Positions 32,728-40,521 of a stretch of 64,000 nt of DNA are shown in pieces. The stretch comes from Archangium primigenium (GTDB lineage: Bacteria > Myxococcota > Myxococcia > Myxococcales > Myxococcaceae). Numbering within the stretch: position 1 is the first letter of the stretch; each line of letters begins with the position of its first letter. The notes below the pieces were generated by a model. That model was given only the letters and a program-made list of their open reading frames with translations. It did not search any database and was not told the DNA's origin. The DNA lies in assembly GCF_016904885.1 (NCBI RefSeq), contig NZ_JADWYI010000001.1, forward strand, positions 9,047,224 through 9,111,223. Reading direction: 5' to 3'. A program made the translations under genes and the position numbers.

Positions 32728-32834
32728 GCCCCGGCGCCCTGTCCTCGCGGCCATTGTCCGGCCGGCGCACTGTCGACCCGCGACACGCATGCCCAGCATG
32801 GTCTCCGCGGTGAACGCGGTGAAAGGAGCGGACC

Positions 32835-33338
32835 ATGCGGTGGACACACAGGGTGATGGGGGCGGCATGCGTGGGGGCGGGACTGCTGCTGGGCGTGCCC
32901 CAAGAGGCGTCCGCGCAGGGCTACCGGCGGCAATCCGCGGCCTTCTGCACGCCCATCACCTCGACCTATCAGTCCGTGCGCAGTGACGCGGGCGCCCTCG
33001 GCAACGGGAGCACCTCGGTGATGCGGCTCGTCTGTCCCATCCTCGACGACGGCGTCCTGCCCAAGTCGCAGATCCTCTCGACGCTCGTGGATGTGTATGA
33101 CGGCGCGTCGGCGGCCGTCGTGGATGTCCGCGCGTGCGTCAGCTTCTGGTCCAGCATGGGCGGCGCATGCGGTCCCGCCGCCTCCACCAGCAGCACGGGC
33201 ATGGGCATGATGACCCTCTCGCCGAGCCCTGGCGTGTGGAGCACCTACCCCTCGGACTACGGCTACCTCGTCATCAACCTGCCGGCCTTCACCAGCGGCA
33301 CGGCCAGCTCCGTGCACGGCTACGAGTTGTATCCGTGA
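32835..33338 (+). CDS. Small secreted protein, unknown
   Basis: The 167-residue product has a signal peptide (basic start, hydrophobic core, cleavage near ASAQ at about residue 28). The mature part is short, Ser/Thr/Gly-rich and has four cysteines, with SYQSVRSD-like, LVDVYDGASAAVVDVRACVSF and YGYLVINLP segments suggesting a beta-sandwich. I do not recognise a family; similar small exported proteins are frequent in myxobacteria. GAAAGGAG precedes the ATG. The neighbours offer no pathway link. Confidence 0.65.
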   Translation: MRWTHRVMGAACVGAGLLLGVPQEASAQGYRRQSAAFCTPITSTYQSVRSDAGALGNGSTSVMRLVCPILDDGVLPKSQILSTLVDVYDGASAAVVDVRACVSFWSSMGGACGPAASTSSTGMGMMTLSPSPGVWSTYPSDYGYLVINLPAFTSGTASSVHGYELYP

Positions 33339-33360
33339 GCCCGACGCTCGGGAGGATGCC

Positions 33361-33966
33361 ATGCACCCGGTGAAACGACAGGCCGTGCTGTTCATGCTTC
33401 CCGTGCTGTTCGCGGGGACTGGCGTCACGCTCGCGCATTACCTGCCCCAGGAGCCGCTTCCCGTGGAGGACCCGGATCCACCGCGGGAGCCATCTCGGAA
33501 GCACGAGCCCCCGCCCCCCGTCCCACGGGAGGCCCGGCCAACCCCGTCCGCCACCCTCGCTCGGGATGGGGAACACCCGCGACCGGCCGCCTGGATGGAG
33601 CAGCGCCCGACGCGGGAGGAAGCGCGACGGCGGCTGCTGCGCTATCAGCAGGAACGACTCGACCAGCATGCCCGGGCGCCGGGCGATGCCACCTGGTCCC
33701 GAGGCGCCCGGGATGCCTTCGGCGCGGACTTCGCGGCCCTCACCCGGGAGCAGCCCTTCACGGTGCGGGACATCGACTGCCGGAGCCACACCTGTGTCAC
33801 CACCCTGGAGTGGCCCTCCTACGCCGAGGCCGTTCAGGGCCATGCCCACCTGCTGCGACATCCGTTCGCGATGGACTGCACGCGCAGCATCCTGCTGCCC
33901 GAGCCCGAGGACCCCACGGCGCGCTACCAGGCCCGGCTGTTCCTGGATTGCGCGGGCCCGCCCTGA
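33361..33966 (+). CDS. Membrane-anchored or exported protein, unknown
   Basis: The 201-residue protein begins with a short basic stretch and one hydrophobic segment (about 9-26) that is either a signal anchor or a signal peptide. A Pro-rich, charged linker (about 30-75) and a compact C-terminal domain with four cysteines follow: DIDCRSHTC, MDCTRS and FLDC. The paired cysteines suggest disulfides outside the cytoplasm. GGGAGG lies before the ATG. No family is recognised. It follows the secreted protein gene by 22 bases and could be co-transcribed with it. Confidence 0.6.
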   Translation: MHPVKRQAVLFMLPVLFAGTGVTLAHYLPQEPLPVEDPDPPREPSRKHEPPPPVPREARPTPSATLARDGEHPRPAAWMEQRPTREEARRRLLRYQQERLDQHARAPGDATWSRGARDAFGADFAALTREQPFTVRDIDCRSHTCVTTLEWPSYAEAVQGHAHLLRHPFAMDCTRSILLPEPEDPTARYQARLFLDCAGPP

Positions 33967-34045
33967 GCCTCCGGCGCCCGTGACACGCTTCTGTTCCCTG
34001 GAAATCACTGGGAGTACGCTCCCATTCCACGGAAAGAGGTGCGCC

Positions 34046-34738
34046 ATGACGGCCGAAGCGGAGAACCCCGAGGACTCGAAGCTGCTCAAGTTCATCCACC
34101 GGTGGGCGATGTCCCCGGAGGATGCCAAGGAGATCGCGCGCAATTACCGCAAGCAGTCCGAGTCCGCCCATCCCCAGGACGAGCCGGCCCGGCATCAGGA
34201 GCGGGTCGCGGAGAAGATCATCGGCCGGTACGCGAAGCTGTCCGCCATGTCGGGCGGGGCCACGGCGCTCACCGGCGTGGTGCCCGGCATCGGCACGGCG
34301 CTCGCGGCGCTCGGCGGCGGGCTCGCGGACACGGCCGTGTGCATGAAGCTGCAGGTGGACATGGCCTGCTGCCTGGCCGAGTGCTTCGGCTATGACTTGA
34401 ACAAGGAGGACGCCCGGCACCTGGCCTTCCTCATCGCCGCGGGCGGCGCCATCGAGAAGGCGGGCGAGACGGTGGGCGTGAAGCTCGCGAGCGAGGCGGG
34501 CGTGCGGCTGCTGCGCAGCTACATCAAGGGCGCCACGCTCCAGGCCCTCAAGGAGTTCTTCCGGCGCGTGGGCCTCGTCTTCACGCGCAAGGCGCTCGAG
34601 CGCACCCTGCCCTTCGGCGTGGGCGTCGTCATCGGCAGTAGCGCCAACTACGCGCTCACCCGCTACGTCGGCGCCCAGGCCAAGGAGTGGTTCATCCTCG
34701 ACCGCAAGACGCCGCACGCGGACCCCCGGGTTTCCTAA
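34046..34738 (+). CDS. EcsC-like protein
   Basis: The 230-residue protein resembles the EcsC family: a small-residue-rich amphipathic or membrane-associated segment (SGGATALTGVVPGIGTALAALGGGLADTA, about 65-95) followed by helices containing ECFGYDLN. A second hydrophobic stretch with VGVVIGSSANYA lies near the C-terminus. EcsC proteins are poorly understood; in Bacillus one is linked to an ABC transporter. The ATG at 34046 follows GGAAAGAGG. The 131 bases between this gene and the next contain no feature that I can support. Confidence 0.6.
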   Translation: MTAEAENPEDSKLLKFIHRWAMSPEDAKEIARNYRKQSESAHPQDEPARHQERVAEKIIGRYAKLSAMSGGATALTGVVPGIGTALAALGGGLADTAVCMKLQVDMACCLAECFGYDLNKEDARHLAFLIAAGGAIEKAGETVGVKLASEAGVRLLRSYIKGATLQALKEFFRRVGLVFTRKALERTLPFGVGVVIGSSANYALTRYVGAQAKEWFILDRKTPHADPRVS

Positions 34739-34869
34739 ACCGAGGCCACCTCGTGGGGCGGAGCGAACCGCACAGGTCGTGCGGCACGGGGTGACGGCGG
34801 AAGTGGTTTTGCGCTTGCCACGTCCCGCCCCTCTCCCTTAGCGTGCGAGCCCACTCACCGAGGGCTCGT

Positions 34870-35700
34870 GTGCGCCTTGCTCGCTGGCTGATCCTCCCGC
34901 CGCTCGTGCTGTGTTCTTCCGCTGCGGCGCAGGAGGTAAAGGCCTCGTGGCCGTCGAGGGAGCGGGTCCTGGTGGCGCCCACCCACTCCGGTGAAGTCCC
35001 GCCCCTTGAAATCCGCGTGGCGGGCCAGGTCCCCACGCTCTTGCGACTGGACGTGCCACGGGCCTCCGGCGCCCCGGAGTTGCCCACGGGAGAGGCGCCC
35101 GTCCGGCTGATTCCCGTCGAGGAGAGCGCCTTCATCCTCCTCCCCTCCTCCGATGTTCCTCGGGGAGAGCGGATTCCACTCCTCGTGCGCACCGCCACGG
35201 GCGTGCTGCGCTTCACGCTCGTGACCCGGCATGAGGAAACGGACGTGCGGGTGCGGGTCGTCCCCGCTCCGACGTCCTCCGAGGAAGACGCCGCGGAGAC
35301 GCTGGCGCAGCAACTGCTCGCCACGGCGCGGGCCCGCGCATCGCTCGCCCGTCCACAGCAAGAGGTGAGATACCCGCAGCGAAACTCGTTCGCCCAGGTG
35401 GACGCCGTGCTGTGGATGGGTCGGCGCGTCTTCATCACGTTGAGCGTGCAGAGCCCTCGAAGGAGCGGTCGGCTCCGACGATTGGTCCAGGTACGGCTGA
35501 GAGCAAAGGTTGTTGATAACGCCCAGTGGGAGTGGCCTGGACGCCTCCTGTCGGGAGATCCAGACAACAGACGACAGCATCATGTCCTCACCAGCGTTCT
35601 GCCCGAAGGCGCGTCCAGACTCGAGCTGGCGCTGGACGAGGAGAACACGGCCGGCGGCTTTCGTCCCCTGTCCGCGAGCGACGAGCCCGAGGCGCCATGA
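34870..35700 (+). CDS. DUF2381 family exported protein
   Basis: The product is 276 residues from a GTG at 34870 (GAGGG 5 bases upstream). It has a signal peptide (about 1-22, SSAAAQ). The rest has the look of the Myxococcus-specific DUF2381 paralogous family: short beta-rich N-terminal domain, RVVPAPTSSEEDAAETLAQQLL helix, and a C-terminal region with LWMGRRVFITLSVQS. Members are often encoded next to Ser/Thr kinase genes, as here; the stop overlaps the kinase start as ATGA. Function is unknown; a role in sensing or presenting something to the kinase at the envelope is an inference. Confidence 0.75.
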   Translation: MRLARWLILPPLVLCSSAAAQEVKASWPSRERVLVAPTHSGEVPPLEIRVAGQVPTLLRLDVPRASGAPELPTGEAPVRLIPVEESAFILLPSSDVPRGERIPLLVRTATGVLRFTLVTRHEETDVRVRVVPAPTSSEEDAAETLAQQLLATARARASLARPQQEVRYPQRNSFAQVDAVLWMGRRVFITLSVQSPRRSGRLRRLVQVRLRAKVVDNAQWEWPGRLLSGDPDNRRQHHVLTSVLPEGASRLELALDEENTAGGFRPLSASDEPEAP

Positions 35701-37463
35701 ACAGGCCCCTGCATCCCAATCAACTGAGCATCGGCCACCACGTGCGGGACTTCCGGATCGTGCGCCGACTGGGCGTGGGCGGCTACGCCTTCGTCTTCCT
35801 CGTGGAGCGCGCGAGTCAACTCTATGTGTTGAAGATGGCGGCCCAACCCGCATCCGCCACGGACGTGGACAGGGTCGACGCCTGGATGCGCCGCGAGGTG
35901 CTCTCCCTGGAGTCCTTGGAGCATCCCCACCTGCTGCCCGTGCTGGAGTGGGGCCGTTGGCCCGAGCCCGTGGGGGGCTACGGCTACTTCGTGATGCCCT
36001 ATAAGGCGGCCTCCACCTTCCATGAGTGGCGCTGGCGTGAGCGCGCCGCCCTGGACCGGTGCATGGTCGTGCTGTGCGAGCACTTGAAGACCCTGGAGGC
36101 GCTGCATGCACGCGGCGTGTGCCATCGGGACATCAAGGCGGACAACATCCTCGTGAGGCGGGAAGACGACATGCCCTTGCTGATCGACTTCGGCGCGGCG
36201 CACCTGCCGTGGGCACGACCCGTCACGGAGGGGTTGGCGCCGGGCACGCTCTACTGCCAGCCGCCCGAGGCCATCGCTTTTCTCGTGTCCGATGCGGCGC
36301 GGAAGGGGGAGAGGCTGGAAGCCCGGCCCTCGGCGGACCTGTATGCCTTCGGTGTGCTGCTCTACGAGACGCTCACCAACTGCCGTCCCTTCAGCACGGC
36401 ACTGACGTTGGACGCCTTGCTCGTGACCATCGCCACCACCTCCCCCCTGGAACCCCAGAGGCTCGCGCCTGGAGTGCCAGCGGAGCTCTGCGCGCTGACG
36501 ATGCGACTGCTGGCGAAGAAGCCCGAGCACCGTCCACCGAGTGCTCGTGTGGTCCGAGAGGAACTGGAACGATTGCTCCGCGAGGAGGGCCACGGTACGT
36601 CCTGGAAGACTCCCGCCCAGCGTCCCTCCGAATGTGCCCGACTCCGGGAGCAGTTCCCGGACGTCGACCGCCTGGAACAAACGGGGGAAGACTCACCGGA
36701 CCCCTCCGCCCAGCATCGGGCGGGCTGGCCTCGTGAGCGAGCCCGGCGTCTTCTCATGCGAGCGTCCGGGTTGGTGCTGTTACTCGGGCTGGGATGGATG
36801 ATCCTCCGTGTACTGGGCCCGCCCATCACCCACAACCAAGGAACCTCCGCCATGCCATCCCCATCCACGCCCTCGCGCCCATGCACGTGGCTCACCCACG
36901 TCGTGGGTCTCTCCGTCGCGCAGTTGCTGGGCTGTGCGACCGTGCCCACTCGGCCTGACCCCGAGGGCTATCTCGCGCGCTGTTCTCCCGAAGCACGTGC
37001 CACGCCCGCGAAGTTGGGGCTCGATCCCCGTGAAAACCCAACGTTCCTGGATGTGGGAACACCGGCCTCGGATCTCTCCGTTGAGGACGGTGGCGCATTG
37101 AACCTCAAGTCCGGACCCGTGACCGCCACCATGTACCCGAAGATCAAGGGAGTCGAACTGGAGACACAGATTACTGGAGAGGCGGTGACCACGCCCGTTC
37201 GGGTCTACATCCAGTTCAACCGACTGCGACTGCCGGATGGCACCACGCTTCCCATCTGCGGCGTGGCCGTGGACGCCATCCACCAGTACGGCATCCCGAC
37301 CTACGCGAAGGTGCCCTTCGACGGCAACGTGGTGGATCCAGCGCTCGTGGACAAGACTCCTGGCTCCGTGGTGCTCAACGTGCCACGCTTCGAGACCGTG
37401 CTGCAGGGCCCCGAGGGCTACCCGACGCCCCTCATCGATCTGGCCCCACCGGGCTACCGCTGA
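35697..37463 (+). CDS. Ser/Thr protein kinase fused to a lipoprotein-like C-terminal domain
   Basis: The 588-residue protein has a Hanks-type kinase domain at about 18-305: LGVGGYAFV (residues 25-33), K46 in YVLKMA, CHRDIKADN (D145) and LIDFGAA (D164) are all intact. A membrane segment follows (about 353-372). After it, from an internal ATG (M386, base 36852), comes a lipoprotein-like signal: hydrophobic core and lipobox QLLGC (C413). A ~175-residue domain (DLSVEDGGALNLKSGPV..., PICGVAVDAIHQYG) ends the protein. The internal ATG has AAGGA 9 bases upstream. Either one fused polypeptide or a kinase plus a separately initiated lipoprotein is possible. It is coupled to DUF2381 by an ATGA overlap. 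Confidence 0.85.
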   Translation: MNRPLHPNQLSIGHHVRDFRIVRRLGVGGYAFVFLVERASQLYVLKMAAQPASATDVDRVDAWMRREVLSLESLEHPHLLPVLEWGRWPEPVGGYGYFVMPYKAASTFHEWRWRERAALDRCMVVLCEHLKTLEALHARGVCHRDIKADNILVRREDDMPLLIDFGAAHLPWARPVTEGLAPGTLYCQPPEAIAFLVSDAARKGERLEARPSADLYAFGVLLYETLTNCRPFSTALTLDALLVTIATTSPLEPQRLAPGVPAELCALTMRLLAKKPEHRPPSARVVREELERLLREEGHGTSWKTPAQRPSECARLREQFPDVDRLEQTGEDSPDPSAQHRAGWPRERARRLLMRASGLVLLLGLGWMILRVLGPPITHNQGTSAMPSPSTPSRPCTWLTHVVGLSVAQLLGCATVPTRPDPEGYLARCSPEARATPAKLGLDPRENPTFLDVGTPASDLSVEDGGALNLKSGPVTATMYPKIKGVELETQITGEAVTTPVRVYIQFNRLRLPDGTTLPICGVAVDAIHQYGIPTYAKVPFDGNVVDPALVDKTPGSVVLNVPRFETVLQGPEGYPTPLIDLAPPGYR

Positions 37464-37479
37464 CGAGGACGGAGGAGCC

Positions 37480-38703
37480 GTGCACCCGCTGGACACCCCA
37501 AATACCCGCTCCCATACTTCCCACGTGAGCAATCGCCGTGAAAAGTTCCGTGAGTACATGTCCCTGCTCGACGCGGCGGCGGATCCGCGCCTGGCCATTG
37601 AGCGGGGGTTCTATGTCCAGATGCCCGGTCGAGGGACCGCCGAGCAAATCGCTGGCCGCCTCGAACTGCGGCCGGCGTCCACCCATCTTGTCGTGGGTGG
37701 AGTGGGCGCGGGCAAGACGACCCAGCTCCTGGTGGCGAATGATCGGCTCACGGAACTAGGCGATACCCTCGCCATCTATATTGATGTCAGCAAGCACCAA
37801 GATTTGAGGAAGCTCCAACCTGGAGTGTTGTTGACCCTGGCGGGATTAGACCTTTCTCGCCTGTTGGATGAAGAAAGCGATCTTCGTCCGAAAATCGAAA
37901 ACAGGTTCCTGCTATGGGCGAACGGATACGAAGAGGATCCATTCGCATACGACGAGGCTCCTGGGCCTTGGGTAGGTGGGGTCGTCACATCCCCTTCGCA
38001 TGATCTCGAATTCGACGTGGCTCGCATGAAGAGTTCGCTTGGCGAACTACGCGAGGCCTTGGCAACCCAATGCCCAAACCTCGTCTTCATCATCGACTCG
38101 CTCGATCGACTCTCAACACTGGCGCCGCTTTCCAAGCTCTTGGAGCAAGACATCGCGGCCATTTCGGCACTTGGAATTGGGCTGGTTCTCGTAGGTCCCA
38201 TCCAAGCCATCCATGGGCTCCAGCGACTCACCGCGGAACGCTTCGATTACGTCTACCATCAAGCATTTCTCGACGTGCAACAAGACCCGCACGGACGTGA
38301 CTTCCTCTTCCAGGTCCTGCGGCAGCGCGCTCCAGAGTCATTGATATCCGCAGAGCTTTGCATGCAGCTGGTCAGGTACTCAGGAGGAGCGCTCAGGGAT
38401 TTGATCTCCCTGGCGAGGCAAGCTGTCGAAGAGGCTTATCTGGATGGGGCGGACACGGTGAACAGTGGTCACGTGTTAACCGCGGCGGATGCACTCGGAC
38501 GCAGTCTCATGATTGGACTCAGACCCGCCGAGCTCAACGTCCTCCAGTTGGTCCGAGAGCAAGGCTCGTTCGTCATGACCTCGGAGGATGACCTCGCACT
38601 GCTGGCAACGCGCCGGATACTCGAGTACCGGTCGCCCGGAGTGCGCTACACGGTGCATCCCACGATCGAGCCTCTGTTGAAGCAACTCACGGGTGGGAAA
38701 TGA
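37480..38703 (+). CDS. P-loop ATPase with C-terminal winged-helix-like region
   Basis: The 407-residue protein begins at a GTG (37480) right after GGAGGAG. Walker A is GGVGAGKTT (residues 73-81) and Walker B is LVFIIDSLDRL (D206), followed by a sensor-like stretch GIGLVLVGP. The last ~70 residues (GLRPAELNVLQLVREQG... to YTVHPTIEPLL) look like a winged helix, as in AAA/STAND-type signalling ATPases. Counting two 60-base lines (37801-37920) gives 48-53% G+C, against roughly 70% or more in the neighbours, which suggests recent acquisition. It ends with an ATGA overlap onto the next gene. The biological role is not known. Confidence 0.8.
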   Translation: MHPLDTPNTRSHTSHVSNRREKFREYMSLLDAAADPRLAIERGFYVQMPGRGTAEQIAGRLELRPASTHLVVGGVGAGKTTQLLVANDRLTELGDTLAIYIDVSKHQDLRKLQPGVLLTLAGLDLSRLLDEESDLRPKIENRFLLWANGYEEDPFAYDEAPGPWVGGVVTSPSHDLEFDVARMKSSLGELREALATQCPNLVFIIDSLDRLSTLAPLSKLLEQDIAAISALGIGLVLVGPIQAIHGLQRLTAERFDYVYHQAFLDVQQDPHGRDFLFQVLRQRAPESLISAELCMQLVRYSGGALRDLISLARQAVEEAYLDGADTVNSGHVLTAADALGRSLMIGLRPAELNVLQLVREQGSFVMTSEDDLALLATRRILEYRSPGVRYTVHPTIEPLLKQLTGGK

Positions 38704-39293
38704 GCGGTCCTCCCAGAATGCTCAGCCTGGGAGAGTTCGCGCTCCGTATCTCGGCGCGTCCCGGGCGCGGAGGTTGGTTCGTGATGCTGATTCCCGAGAG
38801 ACAGGGCAAGCAGATAGCGGATGCCTTGTTGGAGGAATTTCCCGCTCTCGGTATCGAGGATGCCCGTGTCGTGGACCGCCCCACCAACGGGAGCGAACTG
38901 GCTCGCCAGTCAAAAGAGACGAGCGGCGTTCTCGTGGTTTCTGGCCTGGATGGGTTTTCCGAGGATGAATGGCGCCACGTGGATCTGCTTCGCAGTCAGT
39001 TCCAGCGCGAGGAGGCCGTCGTGCTCATCCTGGAGACGTCCACGGCGGAACGTCTCCAACGAGCGGCACCCAATCTGATGAGCTGGATCAGTGGCTCCGT
39101 CTGGGTGCTCCAGCCCGAGGCGGACAGCCTCTCCTCCGAGCAGCGTGAAGCCCGTCTCCAGTCGCTTCGTCAGTGGGCCCGCATGACAGACGAGCGCGTT
39201 GTTGAAATGGCCATGCAAGGGCAGCTCCCGGCAGACCCGGCCTACGCCGAATGGCTCGTTCTCCTGAATCGGGGTGATCTGCTTGGCCTCTGA
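38700..39293 (+). CDS. ATPase-associated protein, unknown (degenerate P-loop fold?)
   Basis: The 197-residue soluble protein starts at an ATG overlapping the ATPase stop (ATGA). Its middle part, GVLVVSGLDGFSEDEW followed by VVLILETSTAERLQRAAPNLMSWI, has the look of the Walker B and sensor region of an AAA/STAND ATPase. No Walker A (GxxxxGK) exists; the equivalent N-terminal strand reads GGWFVMLIPERQGK. It may be an inactive ATPase-like subunit that pairs with the preceding protein. The C-terminal ~55 residues are helical. No family is recognised. The downstream gene begins inside its 3' end. Confidence 0.65.
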   Translation: MSGPPRMLSLGEFALRISARPGRGGWFVMLIPERQGKQIADALLEEFPALGIEDARVVDRPTNGSELARQSKETSGVLVVSGLDGFSEDEWRHVDLLRSQFQREEAVVLILETSTAERLQRAAPNLMSWISGSVWVLQPEADSLSSEQREARLQSLRQWARMTDERVVEMAMQGQLPADPAYAEWLVLLNRGDLLGL

Positions 39294-39870
39294 AGTGAAC
39301 CGCGAACACGCTCGCCGCTTGCAGGAGCGGATCTGTGGCGCGGACCTGCCCTTGCCCTCGACCGCGAAACAACTGCGCCAGGAGATCTCCGCGTATCTGT
39401 TGTCCGCCAGTGACGAGAAGGAGTTGAAGTCCCCTCCTCAACAGGTTCTCAAGTTACTCAAGCTCACCCCCTCGAAAGATGGACAGAGCCAGACGCATGT
39501 CATCACGGGAGGGATGGTCGAGAAGGCCAAGGACTTCCGGCGCGAGCGGACCAAGGCAGAGCTGTTCGAGCGTCGCGACGGCGCGCTCATCAGCTTCTCG
39601 CTCACCCTCCAGGAAGCGTCGGAAGGAAAACTGACGCTCATCGCCTACGACTTCGAGATTCGCTTTCACGGTGAGGGCATGGTGCCTGGGTTCCTGCGGT
39701 TCGACCTCAACCCGCCCAAGCACAACAACGACGACATCGGGATGCGGAGCCATTTCCATCCGGGCAGTGATGACCTGCAGGCCCACGCCCCGCTCATGGC
39801 TCCGGTCGAACTCCTCGAGCTGTTCATCTACAAGCTGCGGCCTCGCAACCCAGACAAGCCCAGGGCCTGA
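39283..39870 (+). CDS. Unknown protein with conserved-looking His/Asp cluster, third gene of ATPase module
   Basis: The product is 195 residues if the TTG at 39283 is used (GGGGTGAT upstream); a GTG at 39274 or 39295 is also possible, and all begin within or just after the 3' end of the preceding gene. The N-terminal half is helical and charged. The C-terminal part contains LRFDLNPPKHNNDD and MRSHFHPGSDDLQ, a cluster of His and Asp residues of the kind that binds metal, then a leucine-rich helix (PVELLELFIYKLRP). This could be an enzyme, possibly a nuclease or hydrolase, but I do not recognise the family. Its tight coupling to the ATPase and its partner suggests one functional unit. Confidence 0.65.
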   Translation: MASEVNREHARRLQERICGADLPLPSTAKQLRQEISAYLLSASDEKELKSPPQQVLKLLKLTPSKDGQSQTHVITGGMVEKAKDFRRERTKAELFERRDGALISFSLTLQEASEGKLTLIAYDFEIRFHGEGMVPGFLRFDLNPPKHNNDDIGMRSHFHPGSDDLQAHAPLMAPVELLELFIYKLRPRNPDKPRA

Positions 39871-39882
39871 GCGAGCGGTGGT

Positions 39883-40521
39883 CTACACCTGGGCCGCCCG
39901 GGTCCAGGCCTGGAGCGCCGGCAGCGCGAGCAACGCGTCGCGGTACGCGGCGCACCCGGCGTCCAACTCCACGCCATAGGTGACGAAGCGCGTGACCACG
40001 GGCGCGTAGAACGCGTCCGCGATGGAGAAGGCGCCGAAGAGGAATGGCCCGCCCTGGCCGAAGCGCGCGCGGCACTCCGTCCACAGCGAGGTGATGCGCG
40101 CGATGTCCTCGGCCACGCCCGGCGCGCGGCCCTGGCCCGGCTTCATGTTCCTCAAGTCCATGGACATGTTCGCGCGCAGCGCCTGGAAGCCCGCGTGCAT
40201 CTCCGCGGTGGCCGCGCGCGCCCAGGCCCGCGCCTCGCGCGCCTCGGGCCACAGCCGTGCCTCGGGGAATTGCTCGGCCAGGTACTCGCAGATGGCGAGT
40301 GAATCCCAGATGGCCAGCGCGCCGTGCACCAGCACCGGCACCTTGCCGCTGGGTGAATGCTTCCGGATGTTCTCGGGCGTGTCCGCCTGGCCCAAGGCGA
40401 TCACCACCTCGCCAAAGGGCTGCCCGGTGTGGGCGAGCGCGAGGTAGGGCCTCAAGGACCAGGACGACAGGTGTTTGGATGCGACGACGAGGGTCAACGC
40501 GTCAGGGTTCCGCTCGAGCAT
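39883..40521 (-). CDS. Glutathione S-transferase family protein
   Basis: The 212-residue protein has a thioredoxin-like N-terminal domain with SKHLSSWSLRPYLAL, where the serine takes the place of the catalytic residue in zeta/beta-like classes. The cis-proline stretch KVPVLVHGALAIWDSLAICEYLAE follows, then an all-helical C-terminal domain. It should conjugate or isomerise using glutathione or a similar thiol. The ATG at 40521 is preferred because the first strand begins shortly after. It converges on the ATPase module with 12 bases between the stops and is followed upstream by the cyclase gene on the same strand. Confidence 0.85.
   Translation of the reverse strand: MLERNPDALTLVVASKHLSSWSLRPYLALAHTGQPFGEVVIALGQADTPENIRKHSPSGKVPVLVHGALAIWDSLAICEYLAEQFPEARLWPEAREARAWARAATAEMHAGFQALRANMSMDLRNMKPGQGRAPGVAEDIARITSLWTECRARFGQGGPFLFGAFSIADAFYAPVVTRFVTYGVELDAGCAAYRDALLALPALQAWTRAAQV

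What the first reader, a model, noticed from the sequence alone, without database searches (positions are those of the whole stretch)
37480..39870. Low-GC three-gene ATPase module of unknown function
A P-loop ATPase with a winged-helix-like end, a partner that looks like the same fold without a Walker A motif, and a third protein with a His/Asp cluster (HFHPGSDD) are tightly coupled. The ATPase region has 48-53% G+C in counted lines against roughly 70% or more around it. Composition, coupling and an active/inactive ATPase pair are the signs of a transferred conflict or signalling system. This is my best candidate for an undescribed system.
Basis: partly seen in the sequence, partly recalled or inferred. 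Interest (0 to 1): 0.68.

Follow-up and report, generated by a model that had tools for sequence, protein, structure and literature searches.

The report
Three-gene ATPase switch with TumE-like partner
Three tightly linked bacterial genes, found together in the same order in myxobacteria and cyanobacteria, look like an ATP-driven switch controlling a third protein that distantly resembles a known bacterial growth-stopping toxin; no database used here recognises the second or third protein, and what the system does is untested.

Summary
Window 37480-39870 encodes three translationally coupled genes: P1, an ATPase with an ORC/Cdc6-KAP-like P-loop; P2, without a Walker A motif; and P3, with an HFHP motif. 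The stretch is the lowest-G+C 2.4 kb of the window (0.606 against 0.709) and lies in a 7.16-kb insertion absent from the matching site of all four relatives compared. The three genes are a real unit: intact and in order in 8 of 12 loci that carry P3 (two Myxococcota including the window, six cyanobacteria), with congruent divergence. Diverged versions of the whole triad occur in three more Myxococcota. P2 is homologous to an unannotated N-terminal domain of TPR, WD40 or NTPase proteins encoded next to P1-like ATPases. P3 resembles TumE (DUF6516) toxins in topology and motif order, but Pfam's TumE model does not match it and the profile evidence is modest. Best reading: P1 and P2 form a STAND/iSTAND-type ATP switch that restrains or deploys P3, probably a TumE-like RNA-targeting effector. 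The closest published idea is the nSTAND2 active/inactive pair. Defence is inferred, not shown; in cyanobacteria the module sits stably in the chromosome.

The parts
37480..38703 (+). P1: P-loop ATPase (407 aa from GTG 37480, which follows GGAGGAG; or 392 aa from GTG 37525, where the homologues begin), STAND/ORC-Cdc6/KAP-like
37696..37719 (+). P1 Walker A, GGVGAGKT
   Evidence: Walker A present in 9 of 9 close homologues
38080..38109 (+). P1 Walker B, LVFIIDSLDR
   Evidence: Walker B present in 9 of 9
38380..38400 (+). P1 SGGALRD, sensor-2-like motif (name recalled)
   Evidence: SGGxLRD in 9 of 9
38700..39293 (+). P2: 197 aa, no Walker A; stand-alone version of an unannotated adaptor domain found fused to TPR, WD40 or NTPase modules elsewhere
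38991..38993 (+). P2 Arg98, the only residue invariant in 24 P2-like proteins; candidate arginine finger (inference)
39069..39086 (+). P2 PNLMSW motif (AP[DN]F.SW in many P2-like proteins)
39274..39870 (+). P3: 198 aa alpha/beta protein with HxHP; predicted effector, TumE-like
39697..39711 (+). P3 RFDLN motif (R142, D144 nearly invariant in 12 P3-like proteins)
39751..39762 (+). P3 HFHP motif (H160 and H162 invariant in 12 P3-like proteins)
32728..39890 (.). 7.16-kb insertion relative to the matching site in four relatives; also carries an EcsC-like gene, a DUF2381 gene and a kinase gene. Context, not part of the module

Best explanation
P1, P2 and P3 are one three-part system. P1 is the ATP-hydrolysing half of a switch. 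P2 is a degenerate NTPase-like partner that cannot bind ATP itself but may supply its invariant arginine to P1's site; together they would form a mixed ring or oligomer. P3 is the output: an alpha/beta protein with an R-x-D ... H-x-H centre arranged as in TumE toxins, most likely an RNase-type translation inhibitor kept silent by P1-P2 and released or activated when the switch fires, arresting the cell (abortive defence or stress arrest). Shown here: the genes' unity, conservation, motifs, the P2 domain family, and the predicted topology of P3. Inferred: ring assembly, the arginine finger, RNA as target, and the defence role.
For: Same order and coupling: intact triads in 8 of 12 loci with a P3 signal, with P2/P3 overlapping in the loci measured. 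Pairwise identities of P1, P2 and P3 rise and fall together (Spearman 0.86-0.94, 28 pairs of 8 loci). Diverged triads in G103, G004 and G125: profile comparisons E 4e-17 (P1), 1.2e-5 (P2; 0 of 60 shuffles), 3.1e-4 (P3; 0 of 60). P2 of triads against the N-terminal domain of partners of other P1-like ATPases: E 7.7e-7, 0 of 100 shuffles; Arg98 invariant in 24 of 24. P3 model from 4 sequences: pLDDT 72.4, pTM 0.72, two main helices and about eight strands, close to how TumE is described (PMC10584680 passages). P3-like (12) against TumE (25) profile: E 0.0029, 84 columns, motifs in register, 0 of 200 shuffles. Three cyanobacterial loci keep P1 while P3 is broken or lost, the order expected if P3 is the costly part. 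Module G+C is below its surroundings in 11 of 11 loci.
Against: Pfam's TumE model matches none of 5 close P3s at E<=10, nor the P3s of L078 and L075 at E<=1. The smaller P3 set against TumE gave E 0.0096 or, with roles swapped, 0.022, where 2 of 200 shuffles reached the score; the three diverged P3s alone are not significant (E 0.1), and L075's P3 alone against the main P3s is not either. No solved structure matches P3. One locus, L020, has an intact P3 beside broken P1 and P2, so P3 may not be strictly toxic alone, or the metagenome assembly is faulty. Nothing ties the module to phage resistance: no PADLOC match for the three proteins, and several cyanobacteria keep it beside ordinary genes at a shared site. 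P2 being the same fold as P1 rests on E 0.026.
Confidence: 0.42

Rival explanations
1. P3 is the sensor, not the effector. In related two-gene systems the module joined to the P2 domain is TPR or WD40 repeats, which usually bind ligands; P3 would occupy the same place and report a signal to P1-P2, with the output made elsewhere, for example by P1's possible DNA-binding end.
For: P2-like domains are fused to TPR, WD40 or further NTPases (one is stand-alone) in 14 of 15 distant cyanobacterial loci read and fused in about ten of 17 Myxococcota loci read.
Against: P3 keeps catalytic-looking invariant residues (H160, H162; R142 and D144 nearly so) across deep divergence, which a ligand sensor under diversifying pressure would not be expected to keep. 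Its motif order follows TumE.
Confidence: 0.2
2. It is an accessory regulatory or DNA-maintenance module rather than a conflict system: an ORC/Cdc6-like ATPase with a helper and a small enzyme, stably inherited and serving the host.
For: Weak Orc1/Cdc6 and MuB-like similarity of P1. Four cyanobacteria carry it beside the same 421-aa gene. No phage or plasmid copies.
Against: Sparse: 2 of 195 Myxococcota and 8 of 386 cyanobacterial genomes. Lower G+C than surroundings in 11 of 11 loci. Absent from the matching site in 4 of 4 relatives. Repeated decay.
Confidence: 0.22
3. P3 is a JAMM/MPN-type metalloprotease because of its HxHP motif, and the system works by proteolysis.
For: HxHP resembles the JAMM motif H-x-H-P-x6-S-x2-D (motif recalled).
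Against: The Ser/Asp pair of the motif is absent in 12 of 12 P3-like proteins; predicted topology is helix, antiparallel sheet, helix; no JAB hit in Pfam.
Confidence: 0.04
4. The triad is part of a transposition machinery (MuB/TnsC-like ATPase).
For: P1 matches PHROG 296 'DNA transposition protein' at E 1e-5.
Against: No transposase is conserved with it and no repeats mark clear element ends. P1's nearest relatives pair with P2-like partners, not transposases.
Confidence: 0.04

Closest known systems
nSTAND2 two-gene system (PMC8195603, section 15)
   Same: Two adjacent NTPase genes, one active and one with eroded nucleotide-binding motifs; arginine finger proposed in both; the inactive one is linked to variable effector modules; predicted counter-invader role.
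   Different: There the effector (most often GT4 or HEPN) is fused to the inactive protein. Here P2 stands alone and the third gene is a TumE-like protein. I had no nSTAND2 sequence to compare, so kinship is untested.
iSTAND / iSTAND2 ternary systems (PMC7159879, PMC8195603)
   Same: Three-part logic with an inactive STAND component; enriched in multicellular bacteria, cyanobacteria among them.
   Different: Those are built on a MoxR AAA+ and vWA pair; neither is present here.
TumE-TumA toxin-antitoxin (DUF6516, PF20126; PMC10584680)
   Same: Two helices on an antiparallel sheet; R-x-D-N ... H ... H-x-H order; C-terminal helix; profile E 0.0029.
   Different: P3 is longer, is not matched by PF20126, and is paired with an ATPase and P2 instead of a small TumA antitoxin.
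P1-like ATPase plus P2-domain-TPR/WD40/NTPase pairs found here in cyanobacteria and Myxococcota (no published name met)
   Same: Homologous ATPase (E 2e-16 and 3e-13 against two of them) and homologous P2 domain.
   Different: Two genes, P2 domain fused to repeats or other NTPases, no P3.

Membership tests
nSTAND2 two-gene conflict system | Adjacent active and inactive STAND NTPases | tested here: inconclusive
   P1 Walker A/B intact, P2 lacks Walker A; P2 as an NTPase fold only at E 0.026; no nSTAND2 sequences to compare
nSTAND2 two-gene conflict system | Conserved arginine finger in both proteins | tested here: inconclusive
   P2 Arg98 invariant in 24 of 24; its role as a finger not testable
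nSTAND2 two-gene conflict system | Variable effector fused to the inactive module | tested here: not met
   P2 is stand-alone and P3 a separate gene in the window and in 7 other close loci
TumE (PF20126) | Match to the Pfam model over its cut-off | tested here: not met
   No PF20126 match for 5 of 5 members at E<=10
TumE (PF20126) | Two helices packed on a seven-stranded antiparallel sheet | tested here: inconclusive
   P3 model, pLDDT 72.4: two main helices and eight short strands; no direct superposition possible
TumE (PF20126) | Two-gene arrangement with a TumA antitoxin | tested here: not met
   Neighbours are P1 and P2
TumE (PF20126) | Inhibits translation when expressed | not testable with these tools
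   needs experiment
iSTAND/VMAP MoxR-vWA ternary systems | MoxR AAA+ and vWA pair | tested here: not met
   No MoxR or vWA domain in P1, P2 or P3 by Pfam
JAMM/MPN metalloprotease (P3) | HxHPx6SxxD (recalled) | tested here: not met
   SxxD absent after HxH in 12 of 12
Known anti-phage system in PADLOC-DB 2.0.0 | Model match for its proteins | tested here: not met
   0 families for P1, P2 and P3 at E<=1

The most novel reading that the evidence does not exclude
P1 plus the P2 domain is a widespread, unnamed bacterial switch: an active ATPase paired with an arginine-donating pseudo-NTPase adaptor that is joined to interchangeable third modules (TPR, WD40, further NTPases, or the TumE-like P3). 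The window's triad is its minimal toxin-armed form, an ATPase-gated toxin system in which a two-protein NTPase switch takes the place of an antitoxin.
Probability: 0.3. Interest if true: 0.78.

Novelty: new variant of a known kind. Interest (0 to 1): 0.58.

Why it matters
If right, it gives a small, easily cloned system (under 2.4 kb) in which an NTPase switch directly controls a TumE-like effector, and it assigns a role to an unannotated domain (P2) encoded next to ATPases in a sizeable share of cyanobacteria. It would link toxin-antitoxin effectors to STAND-type switches and make the 'active plus inactive NTPase' idea testable with three short proteins and point mutants at P1 Lys79, P2 Arg98 and P3 His160/His162.

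Tried and rejected
Single-protein search of genome contigs with P3 found nothing; the two-sequence profile then found three loci. Three viral-contig scans and five phage or plasmid tblastn searches found nothing. PDB sequence searches gave no credible match for P1, P2 or P3. Foldseek against PDB and viral models had nothing at E<=0.001. VIA-align's best match to the P3 model, actin capping protein CapZ at Z 7.0, rmsd 3.4, 101 aligned, lies in the tool's stated background range of 7-8 and is taken as a common arrangement. Single comparisons of P2 with the L009 partner and with P1 were negative; the P2 link emerged only with more sequences. The L075 third gene is not significantly similar to P3 on its own (E 0.069, 2 of 60 shuffles reach it) and counts only as part of a diverged set. 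Hits L079, L080, L082 and L168 were read as other ATPases or a transposase and dropped. JAMM protease and transposition readings rejected as told above. In one search's 195 Myxococcota genomes only two have P3 by that model; the diverged triads were reached by other routes, so frequencies are lower bounds. The literature searches listed no paper that I saw to describe this triad; figures and supplements, including the nSTAND2 lists, were not available, so prior description is not excluded.

Full report
WHAT IS THERE. Three + strand genes run without a gap from 37480 to 39870. P1 starts at GTG 37480, preceded by GGAGGAG, or at GTG 37525, where its homologues begin. P1's stop overlaps P2's ATG by 4 nt and P2 overlaps P3 by 20 nt. 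P1 carries Walker A GGVGAGKT, Walker B LVFIIDSLDR and SGGALRD; all three motifs are in 9 of 9 close homologues, while none of 9 P2s has a Walker A. Library scans leave P2 and P3 unannotated, and place P1 only loosely among AAA/ORC-Cdc6/KAP-like ATPases, below curated cut-offs. The module is 60.6% G+C against a window mean of 70.9% and is the lowest stretch at every scale tried.

HOW IT GOT THERE. Blocks on both sides of the stretch (window 24.3-32.7 kb and 39.9-41.8 kb) are contiguous in G001, G002, G003 (same genus) and G010 (same family), 40-41 bp apart, so 32728-39890 (7,163 bp) is an insertion in this lineage or a shared loss in the others. No integrase, transposase or clear terminal repeat was seen in it. 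The insertion also holds an EcsC-like gene, a DUF2381 gene and a Ser/Thr kinase gene; kinase-DUF2381 homologues occur elsewhere in relatives, so I do not count them in the module. The kinase gene ends 16 nt before P1's first start, so co-transcription is possible.

THE UNIT IS REAL. In a sample of relatives, P1, P2 and P3 each have one strong match outside the window's genome, in the same genome, G032, in the same order. A scan of one genome for each of about 85,000 species found three more loci: an Acaryochloris MAG (L018), Laspinema D2d (L019) and a Myxococcales MAG (L020). Of 386 cyanobacterial genomes 8 have P3, of 195 Myxococcota 2. Over all 12 loci with a P3 signal (window, G032, L018, L019, L020, L032-L038; L019 is one of the eight), 8 hold the intact triad in order. 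L036 has P3 broken by a frameshift. L020 has P3 beside fragments of P1 and P2. L037 is decayed throughout. L038 is a P3 fragment at a contig end. Among close P1 copies in cyanobacteria, G261 and G396 keep P1 but have lost P3 and most or all of P2; G245 and G330 end at contig ends. In the 8 intact loci the pairwise identities of the three proteins are strongly correlated. P2/P3 overlap in the loci measured. Module G+C is below the rest of the locus in 11 of 11 loci, from 32% to 66% G+C.

A DEEPER FAMILY. More distant P1-like ATPases (19 of 193 Myxococcota and 54 of 292 cyanobacterial genomes at E<=0.001, close copies and a few other AAA proteins included) led to two findings. First, three Myxococcota (G125 L078, G004 L075, G103 L169) carry diverged P1-P2-P3 triads, each gene overlapping the next. 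Against the main group the combined profiles give E 4e-17, 1.2e-5 and 3.1e-4 for P1, P2 and P3. Across 12 P3-like proteins L51, H160, H162, P177 and L181 are invariant; G80, R142, D144 and G156 nearly so. Second, most other P1-like ATPases are followed by a protein whose N-terminal ~180 aa resemble P2, fused to TPR, WD40 or another NTPase (14 of 15 distant cyanobacterial loci read, one of the 14 stand-alone). A NACHT protein, L009, is in the same position, but its N-terminus did not reach significance against P2. Realigned independently, 8 P2s of triads match 16 of these domains at E 7.7e-7, with 0 of 100 column shuffles reaching the score (the 16 are those put into A13, not all partners read). 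Arg98 is the one invariant residue of 24. The Pfam, PADLOC and NCBIfam scans name no P2 domain. Against P1, the P2 family aligns its 'LVVSGLDGF...VVLIL' stretch to Walker B and sensor 1 at E 0.026: weak, but in the register expected of a degenerate P-loop NTPase.

WHAT P3 MAY BE. A first single-sequence model was poor. With four sequences AlphaFold2 gave pLDDT 72.4 and pTM 0.72: helix 31-47, about eight strands, helix 177-187. No solved structure stands out. The order R-x-D, P-x-H, H-x-H, final helix recalled TumE/DUF6516 toxins. I fetched TumE loci (22 of 146 cyanobacterial genomes have PF20126), built a profile of 25 proteins, the five of 30 loci without a motif-bearing frame being left out, and compared. 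The 9 close P3s gave E 0.0096 (score 21.7; best of 10 shuffles 15.6) or 0.022 with roles swapped, where 2 of 200 shuffles reached it. The 12-member set gave E 0.0029, 84 columns, motifs in register, 0 of 200 shuffles. The three diverged P3s alone do not reach significance (E 0.1), cyanobacterial P3s alone give 0.0068 and the Myxococcota plus diverged set 0.041. TumE was chosen by eye before the test, and the TumE proteins were picked by a motif, so these values are best taken as suggestive. The published TumE description, two helices on a seven-stranded antiparallel sheet, toxic, translation-inhibiting, RNase activity proposed but unproven, is from passages of PMC10584680. P3 is therefore called TumE-like, not a TumE.

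MECHANISM. Most likely P1 and P2 form a mixed ATPase assembly in which P2 lends its arginine, and P3 is the output. This mirrors the published nSTAND2 pair (active plus inactive STAND with an effector on the inactive one; PMC8195603 section 15, read in full) and the proposal that inactive STANDs act as nucleic-acid receptors (same paper, passages). BREX BrxB is another inactive STAND in defence (PMC12839542, passages). The trigger is unknown. Defence against phage fits sparse occurrence, insertion, decay and low G+C, but L033-L036 share one chromosomal neighbour (its name would be recall), which suggests vertical descent there, so a stress-response role is also open.

VERDICT. A genuine, conserved, largely unannotated three-gene system; a new variant of the STAND-type switch plus effector idea; function inferred.

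Noticed in passing
window 32728-39890: Clean 7.16-kb insertion point between two blocks conserved in relatives, which have only about 41 bp there. Possibly a site of variable gene content.
   Followed up: partly
window 34843-37463: DUF2381 gene overlapping a Ser/Thr kinase gene with a long C-terminal part; homologues of the pair recur at other places in relatives.
   Followed up: no
L149-L162: Many cyanobacteria carry a P1-like ATPase next to a protein with an unannotated P2-like N-terminal domain plus TPR, WD40 or NTPase modules; looks like an unnamed NLR-like two-gene family.
   Followed up: partly
L009 (G006:C180): P1-like ATPase followed by a NACHT protein whose N-terminus may be P2-like (not significant).
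   Followed up: partly
L068 (G000:C1:814000-826000): The window's own genome has a second, distant P1-like ATPase at about 820 kb, similar by sequence to the TPR-paired type; its partner was not identified.
   Followed up: no
L020 6600-8525: In a Myxococcales MAG P3 is intact but P1 and P2 are remnants, downstream of a nucleotidyltransferase-like frame (reading by eye).
   Followed up: partly
L007 10946-11611: IS4/5-type transposase fragment (DUF4096) directly downstream of the G032 triad.
   Followed up: no
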